This document shows, piece by piece, positions 30,019 through 46,879 of a stretch of 57,432 nucleotides of DNA. Every line of letters begins with the position of its first letter. The first letter of the stretch is position 1. Made by a program: the position numbers and the translations under genes. The notes beneath the pieces are model-generated. The model was not told where the DNA came from, searched no databases, and worked only from the letters and a program-made list of their open reading frames with translations. Source of the stretch: Rivularia sp. MS3 (GTDB lineage: Bacteria > Cyanobacteriota > Cyanobacteriia > Cyanobacteriales > Nostocaceae); NCBI GenBank assembly GCA_019192545.1, contig JAHCMI010000061.1, positions 1 through 57,432 on the forward strand, in the 5' to 3' direction.

Positions 30019-31908
30019 GTTGAAACTAAAATTAATCCCTATCAGGGATTGAAACTTTGAATTGCTATGTACAAAAGCAATTTCTGGAAGTTGAAACTAA
30101 AATTAATCCCTATCAGGGATTGAAACGAAGAATTAATAAAAACTTCTCTTTTTTCTTCAAAGTTGAAACTAAAATTAATCCCTATCAGGGATTGAAACAC
30201 CTGTGCCCAACTAACGCAAGAAATAAACGCTAGTTGAAACTAAAATTAATCCCTATCAGGGATTGAAACTTGCTCGAAATCGAAAATATACTCAGCAAGC
30301 GATAGTTGAAACTAAAATTAATCCCTATCAGGGATTGAAACCTCTTAAAGAGCCTAAAGCTATGCGTAAAAGTCTGTTGAAACTAAAATTAATCCCTATC
30401 AGGGATTGAAACCAAGATACTATCAACCCTGAATCTTGGGATTTACCGTTGAAACTAAAATTAATCCCTATCAGGGATTGAAACACCATTAACCTTCAAA
30501 GACCTTTTAGCTAAGGAGGTTGAAACTAAAATTAATCCCTATCAGGGATTGAAACATAAACTAAATTCTGCTTTTCTACTGGCGATTGGTTGAAACTAAA
30601 ATTAATCCCTATCAGGGATTGAAACTTATGACCTAGAGAAGATAACCCAACAGCTACCTGTTGAAACTAAAATTAATCCCTATCAGGGATTGAAACGCGA
30701 ATGAACCGCTATAGAGGCGGAATGTATGCTGTTGAAACTAAAATTAATCCCTATCAGGGATTGAAACTTCGGCTAACCCCTACGAAGAAGGTACTCAAGC
30801 GTTGAAACTAAAATTAATCCCTATCAGGGATTGAAACAAATAGGAAAAATAAAAAGAAGATGGTTTTAGCAAGTTGAAACTAAAATTAATCCCTATCAGG
30901 GATTGAAACGGATATCTTGATTGGGGAGAAACGTTAAAAGAGTGTTGAAACTAAAATTAATCCCTATCAGGGATTGAAACCTGCCAGCTGCATTACCAGC
31001 ACCCGCAGCAAGTTGAAACTAAAATTAATCCCTATCAGGGATTGAAACTTGTAAACCCTACCTCCGTAACCTCGGCTAGTTTGTTGAAACTAAAATTAAT
31101 CCCTATCAGGGATTGAAACCTTATTTATCTTAATGACTTGTTAGATGTAGCTCGTTGAAACTAAAATTAATCCCTATCAGGGATTGAAACGCCTCACTCG
31201 CATTCATCCCACACTGCCTTTCAGGTCAGGTTGAAACTAAAATTAATCCCTATCAGGGATTGAAACGTATTTAGCTTCTAAGCTTGTGACTTTACTTTTA
31301 GTTGAAACTAAAATTAATCCCTATCAGGGATTGAAACATGGAATTTATCGTGGAGACAATATTAAATGTTTGTTGAAACTAAAATTAATCCCTATCAGGG
31401 ATTGAAACGAGTGGATAAAGAAAATTTCCAATTCAAAATTACTGTTGAAACTAAAATTAATCCCTATCAGGGATTGAAACCTCTAATTCTGCTTTTCTGT
31501 GCCAAAGAAAACAATGTTGAAACTAAAATTAATCCCTATCAGGGATTGAAACGATTCTCACTACCCCCATCTGCATAAACCAATCTTGTTGAAACTAAAA
31601 TTAATCCCTATCAGGGATTGAAACAAAAAGAATTTATTCAATTACGGGAACGGCTAACGTTGAAACTAAAATTAATCCCTATCAGGGATTGAAACAATTC
31701 TTCTTCAGGGTTAATTATAAATGGAATTGTTGAAACTAAAACAAATCCCTATCAGGGATTGAAACATGCCAGCGTAGGGGATTTATCTCAACTATTCATG
31801 TTGAAACTAAAACAAATCCCTATCAGGGATTGAAACTACTAGCCAAGACGCTAGTATTATCGCCAAAACACGTTGAAACTAAAACAAGTCCCTATCAGGG
31901 ATTGAAAC
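30019..31908 (+). CRISPR. CRISPR array, 27 repeats and 26 spacers
   Basis: The 37-nt repeat starts GTTGAAACTAAAATTAAT and ends AGGGATTGAAAC, with an internal stem AATCCCT/AGGGATT. I count 27 repeats (first 30019-30055, last 31872-31908). Spacers are 31-39 nt, mostly 34 or 35. The first 24 repeats are identical. The last three change ATTAAT to ACAAAT (31729 and 31800) or ACAAGT (31872), marking the old, distal end. The ATTGAAAC 3' end is the usual crRNA 5' handle, so transcription is on the plus strand. No cas gene lies in the window, so the type (probably a I-D or III-like cyanobacterial system acting in trans) cannot be assigned. Confidence 0.98.
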
Positions 31909-41944: not shown

Positions 41945-42186
41945 TTATCATTCGGCTTTCTTAGGTATTGGTAGGGTGCGTTATGACGACAGTAAGGCCC
42001 GCACCGTAACCCTTATTAAGTGGTGCGTTGCGCTGCGCGACAACACAACGGCAGTATTGGGGGAGGAAAATCCACACCCCAATCTGCCTCCCCTACGTAT
42101 GTTATGCCCTTCGGGCACGCTTCGCTAACAAAAATCAAATAGTAATCCTATATTATTAAAAAATTATCATTCGGCTTTCTTATATT
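41945..42186. mobile_element. TATAGGATT-family element inserted at a gene end, flanked by long direct repeats
   Basis: A copy of the 25672-25942 element, in opposite orientation, occupies about 41965-42152. It ends AGTAATCCTATA and holds the CCCTTCGGG hairpin module at 42103-42130. It is bracketed by near-identical 26-bp direct repeats (TTATCATTCGGCTTTCTTA at 41945 and 42166), the second of which is the 3' end of the gene at 42167-42838. Confidence 0.75.
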
Positions 42187-42838
42187 TATTTAGTCTCCTC
42201 CAGTAAGCAGCCCCACCAATCAAAGACATGCCAAAAACTGGAACATACCAAAGGAAAGCTGTATTTTTGCTTGCAGGCAATGGCAGCTTATCTCCCTGTA
42301 AATAAGCTTTTGTTTCTGATTTATTGTTTTTATAAAAATAAGTAATTGAGCTATTATTCAAATTTAAATATCTATTATTAATTTCAGAAACTTCATAACC
42401 CATAGCAACTTTATCTATTTGATAAATGTCCTTCATTCTTTTAATAGGATTGATTCTTCTTGTCGCAGGAATTAATTTATCTTTTTTGCTTTCAAAATCT
42501 TTTAATCGCTCAAATTCTCCAATAATATCTTTCTTTAAATCAACATCAGATTTTTTCAAGGCATAAACTTCACCATAAACACGATAGCCACCCAAATTAT
42601 GACATTCATCGGACTTTAACAGCCTATTCCTAGGTGTCATTCTGGGACCATCTGATTTTTCAACCACCATAAATAAGTAGTCTGGATATTTATCAATATT
42701 AGTAATCTTGAAACAATAACTTACACGACTCATACCCGGAGTTATAACATCTGCTTTTACTAAAGATGATTCAAATAAAGTTAATAAAATTCCTAAAAAA
42801 AGTATTGAAATTAAACTCTGCTTGCGAAATAATCTCAT
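42167..42838 (-). CDS. Secreted or membrane-anchored protein, unknown
   Basis: A 223-residue exported protein. The N-terminal signal (MRLFRKQSLISILFLGILLT, cleaved near VKA-D at about 30) and a C-terminal hydrophobic helix followed by basic residues (FLWYVPVFGMSLIGGAAYWRR) suggest a sorting or anchor tail. The middle part is a mixed domain with two cysteines (SYCFKI, DECHNL) and no family I know. Its signal and tail closely match the shorter protein encoded at 43046-43276, so the two are paralogues. A miniature element sits directly behind its stop codon. Confidence 0.7.
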   Translation of the reverse strand: MRLFRKQSLISILFLGILLTLFESSLVKADVITPGMSRVSYCFKITNIDKYPDYLFMVVEKSDGPRMTPRNRLLKSDECHNLGGYRVYGEVYALKKSDVDLKKDIIGEFERLKDFESKKDKLIPATRRINPIKRMKDIYQIDKVAMGYEVSEINNRYLNLNNSSITYFYKNNKSETKAYLQGDKLPLPASKNTAFLWYVPVFGMSLIGGAAYWRRLNKYKKAE

Positions 42839-43045: not shown

Positions 43046-43276
43046 TTATTTCTCTTTCTCCACATTTTTAGTTTTTTTCCAAAATACAACCCCAGCAATT
43101 AAAGAAATTCCCAAAATAGGCACAACTAAAAGAAGGCTGTTATTGTTTTTTACAGATTCTATATATTCTTCTTCTGGTGGTAAAACATCTGCCCTTGCTA
43201 AAGATGGATTTAGCAAACACAGTAGTATTGCTAATCTAAATATTAAGATTAAACTCTGTTTGCGAAATAATTTCAT
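43046..43276 (-). CDS. Short paralogue of 42167-42838, core missing
   Basis: A 76-residue protein starting at the ATG MKLFRKQSLILIF (a TTG three codons upstream is less likely). It has the same signal peptide type, ending LARA-DVL, then only about 20 polar residues (PPEEEYIESVKNNNS), then the same C-terminal helix and basic tail (LLLVVPILGISLIAGVVFWKK). The whole central domain of the neighbouring paralogue is absent. Either a deletion derivative or a genuine small anchor protein. Same strand, 207 bp upstream of the longer gene. Confidence 0.65.
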   Translation of the reverse strand: MKLFRKQSLILIFRLAILLCLLNPSLARADVLPPEEEYIESVKNNNSLLLVVPILGISLIAGVVFWKKTKNVEKEK

Positions 43277-43370
43277 GGGATTCAATTAAGAAACTACATA
43301 ATATTTATAACTTCTATCTTAATCAAATTATTTGTATTTATTCGGAGCTTGTAAAAGAAGTTGAAGCGTT

Positions 43371-43403: not shown

Positions 43404-43582
43404 GCATTCTCAGCTAGGACTTAGGATTGCTATAACAAATTATTGTCCATGTAATATTTTGTGTTACACTCTGTAGTGAGGTAGCAGTAAAGCTTTGCTA
43501 TAGCTCGGGTTCAGAATGCCCGACTGGTGCGTCAAGCATTGCTTTGAACGTATACCGCGAAGTATTGAAAACTATTTCAACA

Positions 43583-43679
43583 GCATAATTAGCTCAGAGG
43601 AAGAGCGTTAGACTTGAAATCTAAAGGACGTAGGTATGTCCTAGCGGACACGCTTCGCTAACAACTCCTACATTGTGCG
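43583..43679 (+). tRNA. tRNA-like gene, anticodon TGA, T-loop interrupted by dispersed repeat
   Basis: Acceptor GCATAAT/ATTGTGC (7 bp), D-stem GCTC/GAGC, anticodon stem TTAGA/TCTAA with loop CTTGAAA (anticodon TGA at 43615-43617) and T-stem GTAGG/CCTAC. The T-loop (43635-43666) is 32 nt instead of 7 because a small repeat (TATGTCCTAGCGGACACGC...) is inserted. There is no long variable arm, although TGA would mean serine. CCA is not encoded. Possibly a pseudo-tRNA. Confidence 0.7.
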
Positions 43680-43681
43680 CC

Positions 43682-43782
43682 CAAAAGTTAGCTCAATGGC
43701 AGAGCAATAGACTCATAATCTATGATTCACAGGTATCTCCCTTCGGGAGACGCTCCGCGAACGATTCCTGTACTTTTAACCA
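43682..43782 (+). tRNA. tRNA-like gene, anticodon CAT, T-loop interrupted by dispersed repeat
   Basis: Acceptor CAAAAGT/ACTTTTA (first pair C-A mismatched), D-stem GCTC/GAGC, anticodon stem ATAGA/TCTAT with loop CTCATAA (CAT at 43714-43716), T-stem ACAGG/CCTGT and encoded CCA (43780-43782). The T-loop (43734-43766) is 33 nt, holding a different version of the small hairpin repeat (CTCCCTTCGGGAGACGC...). It follows the TGA gene after two bases. Confidence 0.7.
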
Positions 43783-44281
43783 ACAAACTAACCTGAAAAG
43801 TTAGTCAAATCCTACCCTGTCACGGTAGATAAAAAATCCGCAAAACGCTCCTAAGCTCCTTGTTGGAAACAAGGTTCCCAATGGTTGATTTATCAACACA
43901 GGGGAGCGCAATCGGAATGCTTTCCTAGAAAGCAAGCTCCGCAATGTAAGTGCCTGCAACCTTTAGTTACCTAGTAACTTTCGGAAGCTATGGTGAAGTA
44001 GCCAGAGCAATTGTCTTTTCTTTAAATTGAGTATGGGCTTCGCTGGCTGAATTCAGTTTTTCTCAGGAAATTCTGGAAAGATGAAGCGAACCTCGTATTT
44101 GAAAATTGTTCGATAATTTGAGATTACCTGCGGGTATTCTTAGGTTTAACAGCAGTTTTCTTAATCCAGTTACTGCAAAAGCTTTTGCCCGCTACGGAAG
44201 CATATCAGCACTTGCATTTGCGGAGTTTTTGATTGGATAGGGAGTAATGTCGGATTCGCTTAATCGTATGAATAAAAATAT

Positions 44282-44336
44282 GTTCGTAGTTGCGCTTCAG
44301 CGCCAAAAATCTTGGCGCTGAAGCGCAACTACGAAC
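44282..44336. repeat. REP-like palindrome, second copy
   Basis: Two 25-bp perfect arms (GTTCGTAGTTGCGCTTCAGC...) with a 5-nt loop, homologous to 25586-25631. It lies between the two structured-RNA units. Confidence 0.9.
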
Positions 44337-44457
44337 CCTGTATTATAAGTAATTATCCGAACTTTATATAATGAGTAGCAGGTAGTTAAGAATTACCAAT
44401 CCCCCATTCTCTATTCGCTATGCTAAATTTGTAGCGAGATAGTAATTAAGCCACAAA

Positions 44458-45009
44458 ACTATAGCTTGGGTTCTGGATACCCAACTGGTGCGCGAAGCAA
44501 TGCTTTGAGCGTATACCGTTAAGTACTTGAAACTATTTCAACAGCCTAATTCGCTCGGTGGTAGAGCAATCGGTGAATCGCCGATACACGTAGGTTCGAT
44601 CCCTACATTGGGCAACAATAACACCTCCGCCCTGGGTTATGGGCACCTTGTTAGGGACAAGGCTACATAAGTTTAGAGGAGACTAACAGCAACACATTGC
44701 TGTTAGTCTGCAAACTCCGTGATGTGAATGCTTGCAACCGTTGGTTACCTAGTAACTTTCGGAAGCTATGGTGAAGAAGCCAGAGCAATTACCTCTCTCT
44801 TTAACTTGAGTATGTCCTTTGGAAGGCTGCATCCAGTTTTCTTTCGGGAATCCTGGAAAGGTACTACAAACGCCATATTTGAGTACTGTTTGAAAATTTT
44901 CGGTTATCCTTGGGTACCCTGAGATGGGATAACAGTTCTCTTAATCCAGTTACCGCAGACGTTTTTGCCCGCGACGGAACCTATACGCATTTACATTTGC
45001 GGAGTTTTT
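44458..45009 (+). ncRNA. Large structured RNA with one embedded tRNA-like gene, unit 2
   Basis: About 552 nt, homologous to unit 1 on the same strand. Hairpins TGGG/CCCA (44467-44483) and CGC/GCG (44491-44511) replace CGGG/CCCG and CGT/ACG of unit 1. The 3' domain (44714-45004, 291 nt) is closed by 44714-44731 pairing with about 44987-45005 and ends in TTTTT. The block GGTTACCTAGTAACTTTCGG and TTAATCCAGTTAC are nearly identical in both units, while loops differ. Only one tRNA-like gene is embedded and the variable part is shorter (about 100 nt). Confidence 0.7.
44544..44614 (+). tRNA. tRNA-like gene with unusual anticodon loop
   Basis: Acceptor GCCTAAT/ATTGGGC, D-stem GCTC/GAGC, anticodon stem ATCGG/CCGAT and T-arm GTAGG-TTCGATC-CCTAC are all well paired. 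The 7-nt anticodon loop is TGAATCG, so position 33 is G instead of the near-universal U and the nominal anticodon is AAT. CCA is not encoded. It may be a tRNA-like domain rather than a working tRNA. Confidence 0.65.
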
Positions 45010-45283
45010 AATTTAACCTCACCCCGCGCTGTCGCGCACCCCTCTCCTTATTAAAGAGAGGGGAAAGGAAGTAGAAATCATTAATTACCTTTAACCTCTA
45101 CTATCCTTACCCCATTGCCGAATTTGTAATTTCAATGTAGTATATGTAATACATAGGACTGTTGATTGGAGAATGGTAATTCTCAGCAACCAAAACGGTA
45201 GCGCTAGAGTTTAAAGCGATTAAACCACTGTTTCTTATTACCCATTACCAATTACCCATTACCTATTACCTATTAAATTATTT

Positions 45284-46879
45284 ATGTTTCTATCAAGATT
45301 TTTTTCTCGGTTGCGACTGCCTAAATTACCAAAAATATCTATAAAAATACCTATGTGGAAAACATTTTATATTAAACCTGGTGAAATCGGAATTTTATAT
45401 AATCGTAGCGATTTCAAGAAGATTTTGACTTCTGGTACCTATGCTTATTTTGGTAGGTTTTGGCGGGTTGAAACTTTCGATTTAAAGCAGCCAGAAGCTA
45501 ATATTGAAAATTTAGAGTTGTTGTTAAGAGATAATGCGGAAGAGTTACAAGAGCATCTATTAGTAGTACGTACTGATTTCAATCAAGCTGCTTTAGTGCG
45601 AATTGGACAAAGATGGATAACCGTTTTACCAAATCAATTACGAGCATTTTGGCGCGGCTTTATTGAAGTTGAAGCCCATATGTTTAACTTAGAAGAAAGT
45701 TTAGAATTGCCCAGTCAATTCGTGCAGCAATTGCGTGGATTTAATTTCAGCGGCATCAAGAAAATTCTAGTTAAAGAATATGAAATCGGTTTATTGTACG
45801 TGCAAAATAACTTTGTTCGTCCTCTTGAACCTGGAGAATACGCATTTTGGACTATAGATAAGGAGATTTCGTATTATGCAATGAGTCGTCTGGTGCATAA
45901 TCCGCAATTTCCCCTCGAAGAAGTATTAATTGAGAGACATCCTGAGTTTGTTGCCGCTTATTGTGAAACCGTACAAACACTTGCTCAACAGGTGGCAATT
46001 GTTAGGTATCAAGGAAAGGCGATCGCTATATTACCTCCCACCAGTCGCAAGTTATTTTGGCAGGGTGTTGATGTCGAAATCGTCGATATTAGCAACAATC
46101 CTAAATTGTCACCAGCTTTAGTTACCGAATTGGTTTCTGGTTTACCCGAAACCGTAAACTTGAGTCGTAGCTGTTTGCACGTTTGCCAAGTACCCGCTCA
46201 ACACATCGGTTTGCTATACGTAAACCAAGAATTTGAAACGGAACTTGAATCGGGAATTCATGCATGGTGGGTATTTGGACGCTCTTTCCGCAGCGAAGCC
46301 ATTGATTTACGTTTACAAAATATGGAGGTTTCCGGACAAGATATTTTATCCAAAGATAAGGTACCTCTACGTTTGAATTTAAATGCTGGTTTCCGCATTT
46401 TAGATGGATTGACAGCAAGAATTGGATTGTCAGATATCATTGGTTATCTGTACAAAGAATTACAGTTTGCTTTACGTGCTGCGGTGGGTGAAAAGGATTT
46501 AGACGAATTATTAGAAGATAAAGGAGCAATCGACATCAGCATTGCAGAATATATTCGTCCCAAAGCCGCAGAATACGGAATAGAAATTGACTCGGTAGGA
46601 GTCAAAGACATCATTCTTCCCGGAGAAATCAAAACTATATTGAGCAAAGTTGTAGAAGCAGAAAAATCAGCCCAAGCCAATGTAGTACGACGCAGAGAAG
46701 AGACTGCTGCAACTCGTAGCATGTTGAATACAGCAAGAGTAATGGAAGACAACCCCGTAGCATTGAGATTGAAGGAGTTAGAAGTATTAGAAAGAATTTC
46801 CGAAAAAATTGAGAAAATTCAAGTTAACGGCAGCTTGGATAGTATTTTGACAGAATTAATTCAAATTAATCGGAGTTAG
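45284..46879 (+). CDS. SPFH/band 7 protein with three N-terminal repeats
   Basis: A 531-residue protein. Residues about 345-505 form a slipin-like SPFH/band 7 domain (DKVPLRLNLNAGFRI, LDELLEDKGAIDISIAEYI, GIEIDSVGVKDIILPGEI), with the usual coiled tail (VVEAEKSAQANVVRRREE). Before it a module is repeated three times: PGEIGILYNRSDFKKIL near 30, YEIGLLYVQNNFVRPL near 167 and QHIGLLYVNQEFETEL near 308, each followed by a G-x-Y/H-A-Y/F/W motif. There is no clear transmembrane N-terminus. Band 7 proteins form membrane scaffolds and recruit proteases; this triple-module form may use the repeats for assembly. ATG start clear, monocistronic. Confidence 0.82.
   Translation: MFLSRFFSRLRLPKLPKISIKIPMWKTFYIKPGEIGILYNRSDFKKILTSGTYAYFGRFWRVETFDLKQPEANIENLELLLRDNAEELQEHLLVVRTDFNQAALVRIGQRWITVLPNQLRAFWRGFIEVEAHMFNLEESLELPSQFVQQLRGFNFSGIKKILVKEYEIGLLYVQNNFVRPLEPGEYAFWTIDKEISYYAMSRLVHNPQFPLEEVLIERHPEFVAAYCETVQTLAQQVAIVRYQGKAIAILPPTSRKLFWQGVDVEIVDISNNPKLSPALVTELVSGLPETVNLSRSCLHVCQVPAQHIGLLYVNQEFETELESGIHAWWVFGRSFRSEAIDLRLQNMEVSGQDILSKDKVPLRLNLNAGFRILDGLTARIGLSDIIGYLYKELQFALRAAVGEKDLDELLEDKGAIDISIAEYIRPKAAEYGIEIDSVGVKDIILPGEIKTILSKVVEAEKSAQANVVRRREETAATRSMLNTARVMEDNPVALRLKELEVLERISEKIEKIQVNGSLDSILTELIQINRS

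What the first reader, a model, noticed from the sequence alone, without database searches (positions are those of the whole stretch)
43497..45009. Two paralogous large structured RNAs that embed tRNA-like genes
Two units on one strand share 5' hairpins, an embedded tRNA-like segment, a variable region and a 3' domain of 289 and 291 nt that ends in a T-run. Base changes between the units keep pairing: CGGG/CCCG becomes TGGG/CCCA, CGT/ACG becomes CGC/GCG, and within the long-range closing helix AGTGC/GCACT becomes AATGC/GCATT. Loops vary freely and no reading frame is shared. This is what a selected RNA looks like. GOLLD and ROOL RNAs are known as very large ornate bacterial RNAs often near tRNAs, so this may be a cyanobacterial relative or a new class.
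Basis: partly seen in the sequence, partly recalled or inferred. Interest (0 to 1): 0.92.

Follow-up and report, generated by a model that had tools for sequence, protein, structure and literature searches.

The report
Stress-linked large RNA with tRNA mimics
Many filamentous cyanobacteria carry genes for a large folded RNA with built-in tRNA look-alikes, next to the gene of a ring-forming protein that is switched on when protein synthesis fails; the RNA matches no catalogued RNA family and may be part of a new kind of stress machine.

Summary
The two units (about 43460-44234 and 44419-45013) belong to an RNA family found in 67 cyanobacterial loci and confirmed nowhere else. Each unit has a conserved 5' domain, usually one to three tRNA cloverleafs, and a ~300-nt 3' domain closed by a long helix. 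Compensatory change is strong: 41 of 62 pairs, 0 of 500 shuffles as high. No GOLLD or ROOL match was found, nor phage or plasmid kin.

The cloverleafs keep the tRNA core while anticodon and discriminator drift, so they look like tRNA mimics rather than decoding tRNAs.

A slipin (SPFH) gene follows in 61 of 68 loci, 64 counting pieces cut by the stretch end. RNA and slipin co-occur across genomes. An exact site for TrcR, the published translational-stress repressor, lies between them in 52 of 60 gaps; Anabaena's YdeI-slipin pair is a reported TrcR target (PMC10272220).

Best reading: a new RNA-slipin ribonucleoprotein of the translational-stress response. Transcription, RNA-slipin binding and the decoy or repair role are inferred, not shown.

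The parts
43460..43470 (+). unit 1: conserved upstream block, probably an extended -10 element of the RNA's promoter
   Evidence: T(A/G)TG(C/T)TA lies 35-36 nt before the end point of the upstream stretch (5' domain start) in 62 of 74 units; promoter role inferred
43492..43578 (+). unit 1: conserved 5' domain, two hairpins
   Evidence: profile match; consensus structure with compensatory changes in 30 sequences
43583..43679 (+). unit 1: first tRNA-like segment, T-loop carries a ~30-nt insert
   Evidence: Rfam tRNA 28.9 bits for 43583-43640; end read from sequence; insert
43682..43779 (+). unit 1: second tRNA-like segment, T-loop insert at 43734-43763
   Evidence: Rfam tRNA 46.5 bits; insert is a dispersed repeat, 12 copies with up to 3 mismatches in the genome
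43932..44234 (+). unit 1: 3' domain with long closing helix and T-run
   Evidence: model R1, 274 bits (the model includes this sequence)
44419..44429 (+). unit 2: conserved upstream block
44453..44539 (+). unit 2: conserved 5' domain
   Evidence: profile match
44544..44614 (+). unit 2: tRNA-like segment, anticodon AAT
   Evidence: ARAGORN, Rfam tRNA 47.3 bits
44710..45013 (+). unit 2: 3' domain
   Evidence: model R1, 288 bits (the model includes this sequence)
45136..45143 (+). TrcR-like octamer TGTAGTAT between the RNA and the slipin gene
   Evidence: 52 of 60 homologous gaps carry it, but two matches in the window alone are no more than chance
45284..46879 (+). slipin: SPFH/Band_7 protein of 531 aa with five small N-terminal beta repeats
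   Evidence: Pfam PF01145 E=3e-28; model; linkage

Best explanation
The units are two paralogous genes of a large structured noncoding RNA (495-757 nt in 85 measured units) of the cyanobacterial order to which this genome belongs. Shown by sequence: a fixed architecture (5' domain, cloverleafs, ~300-nt 3' domain closed by a long helix), structure kept by compensatory change, and near-constant linkage to one slipin gene with a TrcR site between them. Inferred as most likely: under translational stress the cell derepresses the slipin (with the tRNA array and RtcB, as reported in Anabaena); the RNA binds the slipin assembly through its conserved domains and forms a ribonucleoprotein; its cloverleafs act as generic tRNA mimics that engage tRNA-directed factors, for example as decoys or holding sites for anticodon-cleaving nucleases and for the RtcB repair pathway. 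My estimates: new RNA family ~0.95; functional partnership with the slipin in the stress response ~0.7; decoy or repair role ~0.25.
For: Family and structure. Cloverleafs in place: profiles of the two segments each hit 85 of 85 units. Not decoding: first segments show 17 anticodons plus 6 unreadable loops in 59 copies, second segments 13 anticodons in 57, and anticodon and discriminator change about as often as free loop positions. Linkage: slipin downstream on the same strand in 61 of 68 loci, plus edge-cut pieces in 3 more. Co-occurrence: 28 of 33 slipin-positive relatives have the RNA; in 292 genomes the 10 with a near-full-length slipin are all RNA-positive in the separate, Fisher p=1e-17. 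Regulation: TrcR octamer in 52 of 60 RNA-to-gene gaps, shuffle mean 0.8, starting 6 nt after the RNA end in 32 of 48; Anabaena alr0739-alr0740 rise 72- and 42-fold without TrcR and are among genes induced by an antibiotic (PMC10272220).
Against: No transcript data seen. No evidence of RNA-slipin contact. Upstream of the RNA the TrcR octamer is absent (0 of 72); only the other half-site is enriched (17 of 72), so control of the RNA itself by TrcR is unproven. G016 keeps an intact slipin without the RNA; L088 and L114 have the RNA and >3 kb downstream without a slipin. I did not compare the Anabaena 7120 sequence; the link rests on the same gene pair. The standard promoter/terminator scan found nothing above shuffles. 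Thirteen RTs found beside units are unexplained by this reading.
Confidence: 0.6

Rival explanations
1. Cis-acting leader: the RNA is a very long leader or attenuator that senses tRNA or ribosome state and controls the slipin operon.
For: Almost always directly upstream of the slipin on the same strand, median 179 nt; the closing helix and T-run could terminate transcription.
Against: A TrcR site, which overlaps or adjoins -10 boxes in Anabaena (PMC10272220), follows the RNA in 52 of 60 gaps, pointing to a separate promoter; other genes (YdeI in 7 loci; an L-PSP protein in L126) can lie between; tandem copies occur; a leader needs no 300-nt conserved domain.
Confidence: 0.15
2. Very divergent member of the GOLLD/ROOL group of phage-borne ornate RNAs, domesticated in cyanobacteria.
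For: Similar size class, conserved 3' region, tRNAs in the linker (PMC12286853).
Against: No Rfam match; no phage, plasmid or viral-contig homologue. I had no GOLLD sequence for a direct profile comparison.
Confidence: 0.07
3. Retron-type RNA: the 3' domain, closed by a long helix, is the template RNA of a type XIII retron reverse transcriptase.
For: 11 of 68 loci carry a related RT beside or between units; the one scanned matches PADLOC RT_XIII at 3e-149; the annotated ORF starts ~10-20 nt after the unit in several; 13 unit-side RTs fall into three groups.
Against: 57 of 68 loci lack it; 15 of 28 RNA-plus-slipin relatives have no such RT at E<=1e-40; RTs standing elsewhere, including the own genome's, have no unit beside them; the internal sequence is conserved as RNA rather than variable like a typical msd (recalled).
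Confidence: 0.07
4. Ordinary tRNA genes with conserved flanks: the tRNAs are cut out and used in translation under stress.
For: tRNA core conserved; CCA at or near the end of 112 of 141 segments; a normally silent tRNA array is in the same regulon in Anabaena (PMC10272220).
Against: Similar bodies with many anticodons, including CTA and unreadable loops; free discriminator base; T-loop inserts in 5 segments of 4 units; large conserved flanks.
Confidence: 0.1

Closest known systems
GOLLD RNA (Rfam RF02032) and ROOL RNA
   Same: Large ornate bacterial RNA; in GOLLD a conserved 3' region and tRNAs sometimes in the linker (PMC12286853); a pseudo-tRNA inside GOLLD in a Mycobacterium (PMC6582537 passages).
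   Different: No sequence or model match; chromosomal, no phage link; has a dedicated protein gene; 3' domain ~300 nt against ~410 nt in GOLLD env-38.
OLE RNA with its membrane protein OapA (recalled; not tested)
   Same: Large structured RNA genetically tied to a membrane-type protein.
   Different: Unrelated protein family; no OLE match in Rfam scans; OLE has no tandem tRNA mimics (recalled).
YrlA / Y RNAs of Ro60-RtcB RNA-repair operons
   Same: tRNA-like domain in a noncoding RNA within an RNA-repair or stress context (PMC7790460, two passages).
   Different: Only sub-threshold YrlA matches over the tandem tRNAs of L020 and L034 (28.8 and 24.2 bits, gathering 69); partner is a slipin; no Ro protein was looked for.
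Vault particle: major vault protein and vault RNA
TrcR translational-stress regulon of Anabaena (trn tRNA array, rtcB, alr0739-alr0740)
   Same: Same YdeI-slipin pair in 6 loci, and TrcR octamers at the slipin.
   Different: The RNA is not mentioned in the parts I saw; the authors say their transcriptome analysis left out long noncoding RNAs.
Type XIII retron RT
   Same: A related RT sits beside units in 11 of 68 loci.
   Different: Absent from most loci and from many RNA-bearing genomes.

Membership tests
GOLLD (RF02032) | Match to the Rfam covariance model | tested here: not met
   own genome best 13.5 bits elsewhere, cut-off 150
GOLLD (RF02032) | Carried by phages or prophages | tested here: not met
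   no match in 50,697 phage records; the one viral-contig pattern hit failed the model
GOLLD (RF02032) | Homo-oligomeric RNA cage | not testable with these tools
   needs cryo-EM
ROOL | Match to the Rfam covariance model | tested here: not met
   no ROOL match in scans of all 4227 Rfam families; that ROOL is among them is recalled
YrlA / Y RNA | Match to the Rfam YrlA model | tested here: not met
   at most 28.8 bits, gathering 69
YrlA / Y RNA | Ro60 homologue encoded nearby | not tested
   recurrent neighbours are slipin, RT, YdeI and others; no dedicated Ro search
Retron (type XIII) | RT gene next to the RNA | tested here: not met
   11 of 68 loci only; none at the window units
Retron (type XIII) | msDNA made from the RNA | not testable with these tools
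   needs experiment
Functional tRNA gene | Cloverleaf with conserved tRNA core | tested here: met
Functional tRNA gene | Anticodon and identity elements constrained | tested here: not met
SPFH/slipin (partner protein) | SPFH domain by sequence and fold | tested here: met
Major vault protein | MVP-type repeats followed by an SPFH-like shoulder | tested here: inconclusive
   whole model yes, with poor superposition; repeats alone weak, and behind an unrelated kinase match
TrcR regulon | Exact TrcR octamer before the slipin/YdeI gene | tested here: met
   52 of 60 gaps, shuffle mean 0.8
TrcR regulon | Exact TrcR octamer in the RNA's own upstream region | tested here: not met
   0 of 72; other half-site TGTATTAC in 17 of 72, shuffle mean 0.6

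The most novel reading that the evidence does not exclude
A vault-like ribonucleoprotein of bacteria: a slipin built of small beta repeats and an SPFH domain forms a dome or cage that carries a large dedicated RNA, whose tandem tRNA mimics soak up or hold tRNA-damaging and tRNA-repairing factors during translational stress.
Probability: 0.15. Interest if true: 0.97.

Novelty: categorically new. Interest (0 to 1): 0.86.

Why it matters
It is a large structured RNA family absent from Rfam 15 that comes with a linked protein gene and a known stress regulator at that gene. That makes an open question directly testable: what large ornate RNAs with embedded tRNAs are for. It would give a function to a slipin that turns up in a translational-stress regulon, and it hints at a bacterial RNA-plus-SPFH particle that could be compared with vaults. 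Relatives are culturable, so transcript, pull-down and deletion tests are ordinary work.

Tried and rejected
GOLLD/ROOL: no match with Rfam models. Viral or plasmid origin: no match; the one viral-contig pattern hit, L056, gave 6.8 bits with the model. Homologues outside Cyanobacteria: 4 of 71 pattern stretches (L080 Saprospiraceae, L083 Bacillota, L105 Treponema, L112 Clostridiales) had no model match at E<=0.001 and are taken as chance. Retron identity: considered, then demoted, because most loci and many genomes lack the RT. Pairing between the 5' and 3' domains (ACTGG with CCAGT): nearly invariant, so no support; a mutual-information scan gave no coherent inter-domain helix and was noisy at gapped columns. 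Promoter/terminator scan: 2 and 2 sites against 4.3 and 1.9 in shuffles, none on the + strand. TrcR octamer at the own genome's RtcB genes: none around the first; around the second one match ~540 nt before the start codon inside another frame, plus a near-match to the operator ~165 nt before the start. Octamer near the own standalone RT: none. MVP: left inconclusive; with the repeats alone the best Foldseek row was an unrelated kinase (E=2e-5, prob 0.44).

Literature: no description of this RNA or of a type XIII retron RNA turned up in paper searches; these were listings, and I read only the passages or sections named in the report. PMC12548924 was searched for terms without a hit. The 2017 paper on 224 structured RNAs and the GOLLD/Mycobacterium paper are not held. 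A prior description is therefore not excluded.

Rows dropped: one search used E<=1e-20, which leaves out five weak matches (21-22.5 bits, opposite strand) and others; one search has duplicate loci, removed (86 distinct, one with no measurable length); one search used full-length 3' domains only (87 rows).

Full report
WHAT IS THERE. The two units lie on the + strand of a 9.19-Mb cyanobacterial genome. Their nearest rows in the 3'-domain tree are from genome G006 and Calothrix parasitica NIES-267. The 3' domains are 77% identical and occur only twice in the genome. Unit 1 has two tRNA-like segments and unit 2 one. Both segments of unit 1 are interrupted in the T-loop by a ~30-nt insert; the second insert has 12 copies with up to 3 mismatches in the genome and none for the reversed control.

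A FAMILY. Of 100 related genomes, the own one included, 18 had a match to the 3' domain by DNA similarity, some short. A sequence-only alignment of 21 units gave a consensus of 62 pairs, 28 with double compensatory changes, and a covariance model. A pattern from the most conserved part found 71 stretches among 84,980 species genomes. The model confirmed all 67 cyanobacterial stretches (two of them from one assembly) and none of the 4 others. They come from Nostocaceae, Calotrichaceae, Scytonemataceae, Hapalosiphonaceae, Microcoleaceae, Oscillatoriaceae, Hydrococcaceae, Chroococcaceae and others (names). On 99 sequences 94.5% of cells pair and 41 of 62 pairs show double changes, against 24.5 in shuffles, 0 of 500 as high. 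Sliding the partners by one to three columns lowers pairing to 34-45% (this alignment was fitted to the model). A 5' domain of ~87 nt lies upstream on the same strand within 600 nt of 92 of 103 3'-domain hits, duplicates and cut-off hits included. It has two hairpins with compensatory changes. A block T(A/G)TG(C/T)TA lies at a near-fixed distance before it, 35-36 nt by my count, in 62 of 74 units.

THE tRNA-LIKE PARTS. In 86 distinct units ARAGORN calls no tRNA in 8, one in 22, two in 49 and three in 7, all sense. Profiles of the first and second segment hit 85 of 85 measurable units. Their place in the unit is nearly fixed, and the tRNA core (D-loop GG, T-loop) is conserved. CCA lies at or near the end of 112 of 141 segments. 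First segments show 17 anticodons plus 6 unreadable loops in 59 copies, second segments 13 anticodons in 57; CAT is commonest. Anticodon and discriminator differ between close relatives about as often as the freest loop positions, so I see drift rather than proven diversification. Five segments in four units have a T-loop insert. I infer that the cloverleaf, not decoding, is under selection; processed tRNAs are not excluded.

PARTNER GENE. In 61 of 68 loci a ~523-aa slipin follows on the same strand, median 179 nt away. Of the other seven, L061, L116 and L117 hold edge-cut pieces of it, L081 and L108 have 348 and 0 nt left downstream, and only L088 and L114 have room and no slipin. In 100 relatives 33 have a slipin match, some of them fragments. 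The RNA was found in 28 of these 33: then upstream of the slipin in five further genomes at 176-209 bits and in two at 106 and 44 bits. The five without RNA are G016 (slipin intact), G019, G091 and G009 (broken or partial slipin) and G081 (a 40-42% match). G057 has part of the RNA and a 44-aa slipin piece. A less biased test uses two separate searches. Of 292 phylum-wide genomes the 10 with a near-full-length slipin are all RNA-positive; G343 has a slipin fragment and no RNA hit; G197 has a degenerate RNA and a 37-aa slipin piece. Fisher p = 1e-17 with fragments counted as absent. Two further RNA-positive genomes, G400 and G435, are not among the matches, but their loci do contain the slipin. 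Neither search is exhaustive: one search scored four candidates per genome.

REGULATION. In Anabaena sp. PCC 7120 alr0739 and alr0740 are a YdeI and a slipin homologue (PMC9938897, one passage). Their transcripts rise 72- and 42-fold when TrcR is deleted, TrcR shifts the promoter fragments tested except that of all5040, and both genes are among those raised by an antibiotic in an earlier study (PMC10272220, passages and section 8). Seven loci here have a YdeI/OmdA gene just after the RNA, six of them followed by the slipin. The exact TrcR octamer is in 52 of 60 gaps between RNA and gene, shuffle mean 0.8, and starts 6 nt after the RNA end in 32 of 48. In this window it lies 122 nt after the RNA, and single matches of this kind are expected by chance. 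Upstream of the RNA the octamer is absent (0 of 72) while TGTATTAC, the other half of the trcR operator, occurs in 17 of 72 against 0.6, so TrcR control of the RNA is only suggested. The authors state that their transcriptome analysis did not include long noncoding RNAs. G016 keeps a TrcR-like site without the RNA.

REVERSE TRANSCRIPTASE. Eleven of 68 loci have a RT beside or between units; the one scanned is best matched by PADLOC RT_XIII. The 13 unit-side RTs, two of them from relatives, fall into three groups among 24 others; one group also holds the RT of G091, whose broken slipin lies nearby. Of 28 RNA-plus-slipin relatives 15 have no such RT at E<=1e-40. The own genome has one, not beside a unit. 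In the main Nostoc group of the tree, units after the RT branch outside those before it. Its role here is open.

MECHANISM, MARKED. Shown by sequence: RNA family, integral cloverleafs, slipin linkage, TrcR sites at the slipin. From the literature: induction of the slipin pair under translational stress in Anabaena. Inferred: the RNA is expressed, binds the slipin and works in the same response. Speculative: cloverleafs as decoys or holding sites for tRNA-targeting nucleases and repair enzymes; [quoted passage not shown]

VERDICT. Observation confirmed; new structured RNA family supported; GOLLD/ROOL kinship unsupported. I rate it categorically new because it met none of the model tests for known RNA families and has its own partner gene; the literature searched is incomplete, so this carries that caveat.

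Noticed in passing
window 30019-31908: CRISPR array of about 27 direct repeats (Rfam CRISPR-DR5).
   Followed up: no
window 44282-44336: Perfect 25-bp inverted repeat with a 5-nt spacer between the two RNA units, perhaps a small mobile repeat.
   Followed up: no
window 42167-42838 and 43046-43285, - strand: Two neighbouring ORFs with similar starts and similar C-terminal segments; start regions 88% identical over 40 nt: tandem paralogues, unit-upstream neighbours.
   Followed up: no
window 43734-43763 and the T-loops of L070, L087 and L101 units: A dispersed ~30-nt hairpin repeat has entered the same site, the T-loop of the tRNA-like segments, more than once.
   Followed up: partly
L031 2028-2104 (and about 2 kb between the 5' and 3' domains of L078): A group II intron end lies next to the tRNA-like segments in L031; L078 has ~2 kb between its domains, so mobile elements seem to enter the RNA gene.
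   Followed up: no
G000:C91:74560-75567 (L129, L130): A standalone relative of the type XIII retron RT in the own genome, without a unit, slipin or TrcR octamer beside it.
   Followed up: partly
L187 4750-4780 (genome G016): RNA absent while a TrcR-like site and an intact slipin remain: a natural case of RNA loss.
   Followed up: partly
L126 1563-2135: An L-PSP family protein between unit and slipin; an L-PSP gene, all0767, is also in the published TrcR list.
   Followed up: no
15 loci, e.g. L091 1982-2560: A ~192-aa protein without a Pfam match recurs upstream of the RNA on the same strand.
   Followed up: no
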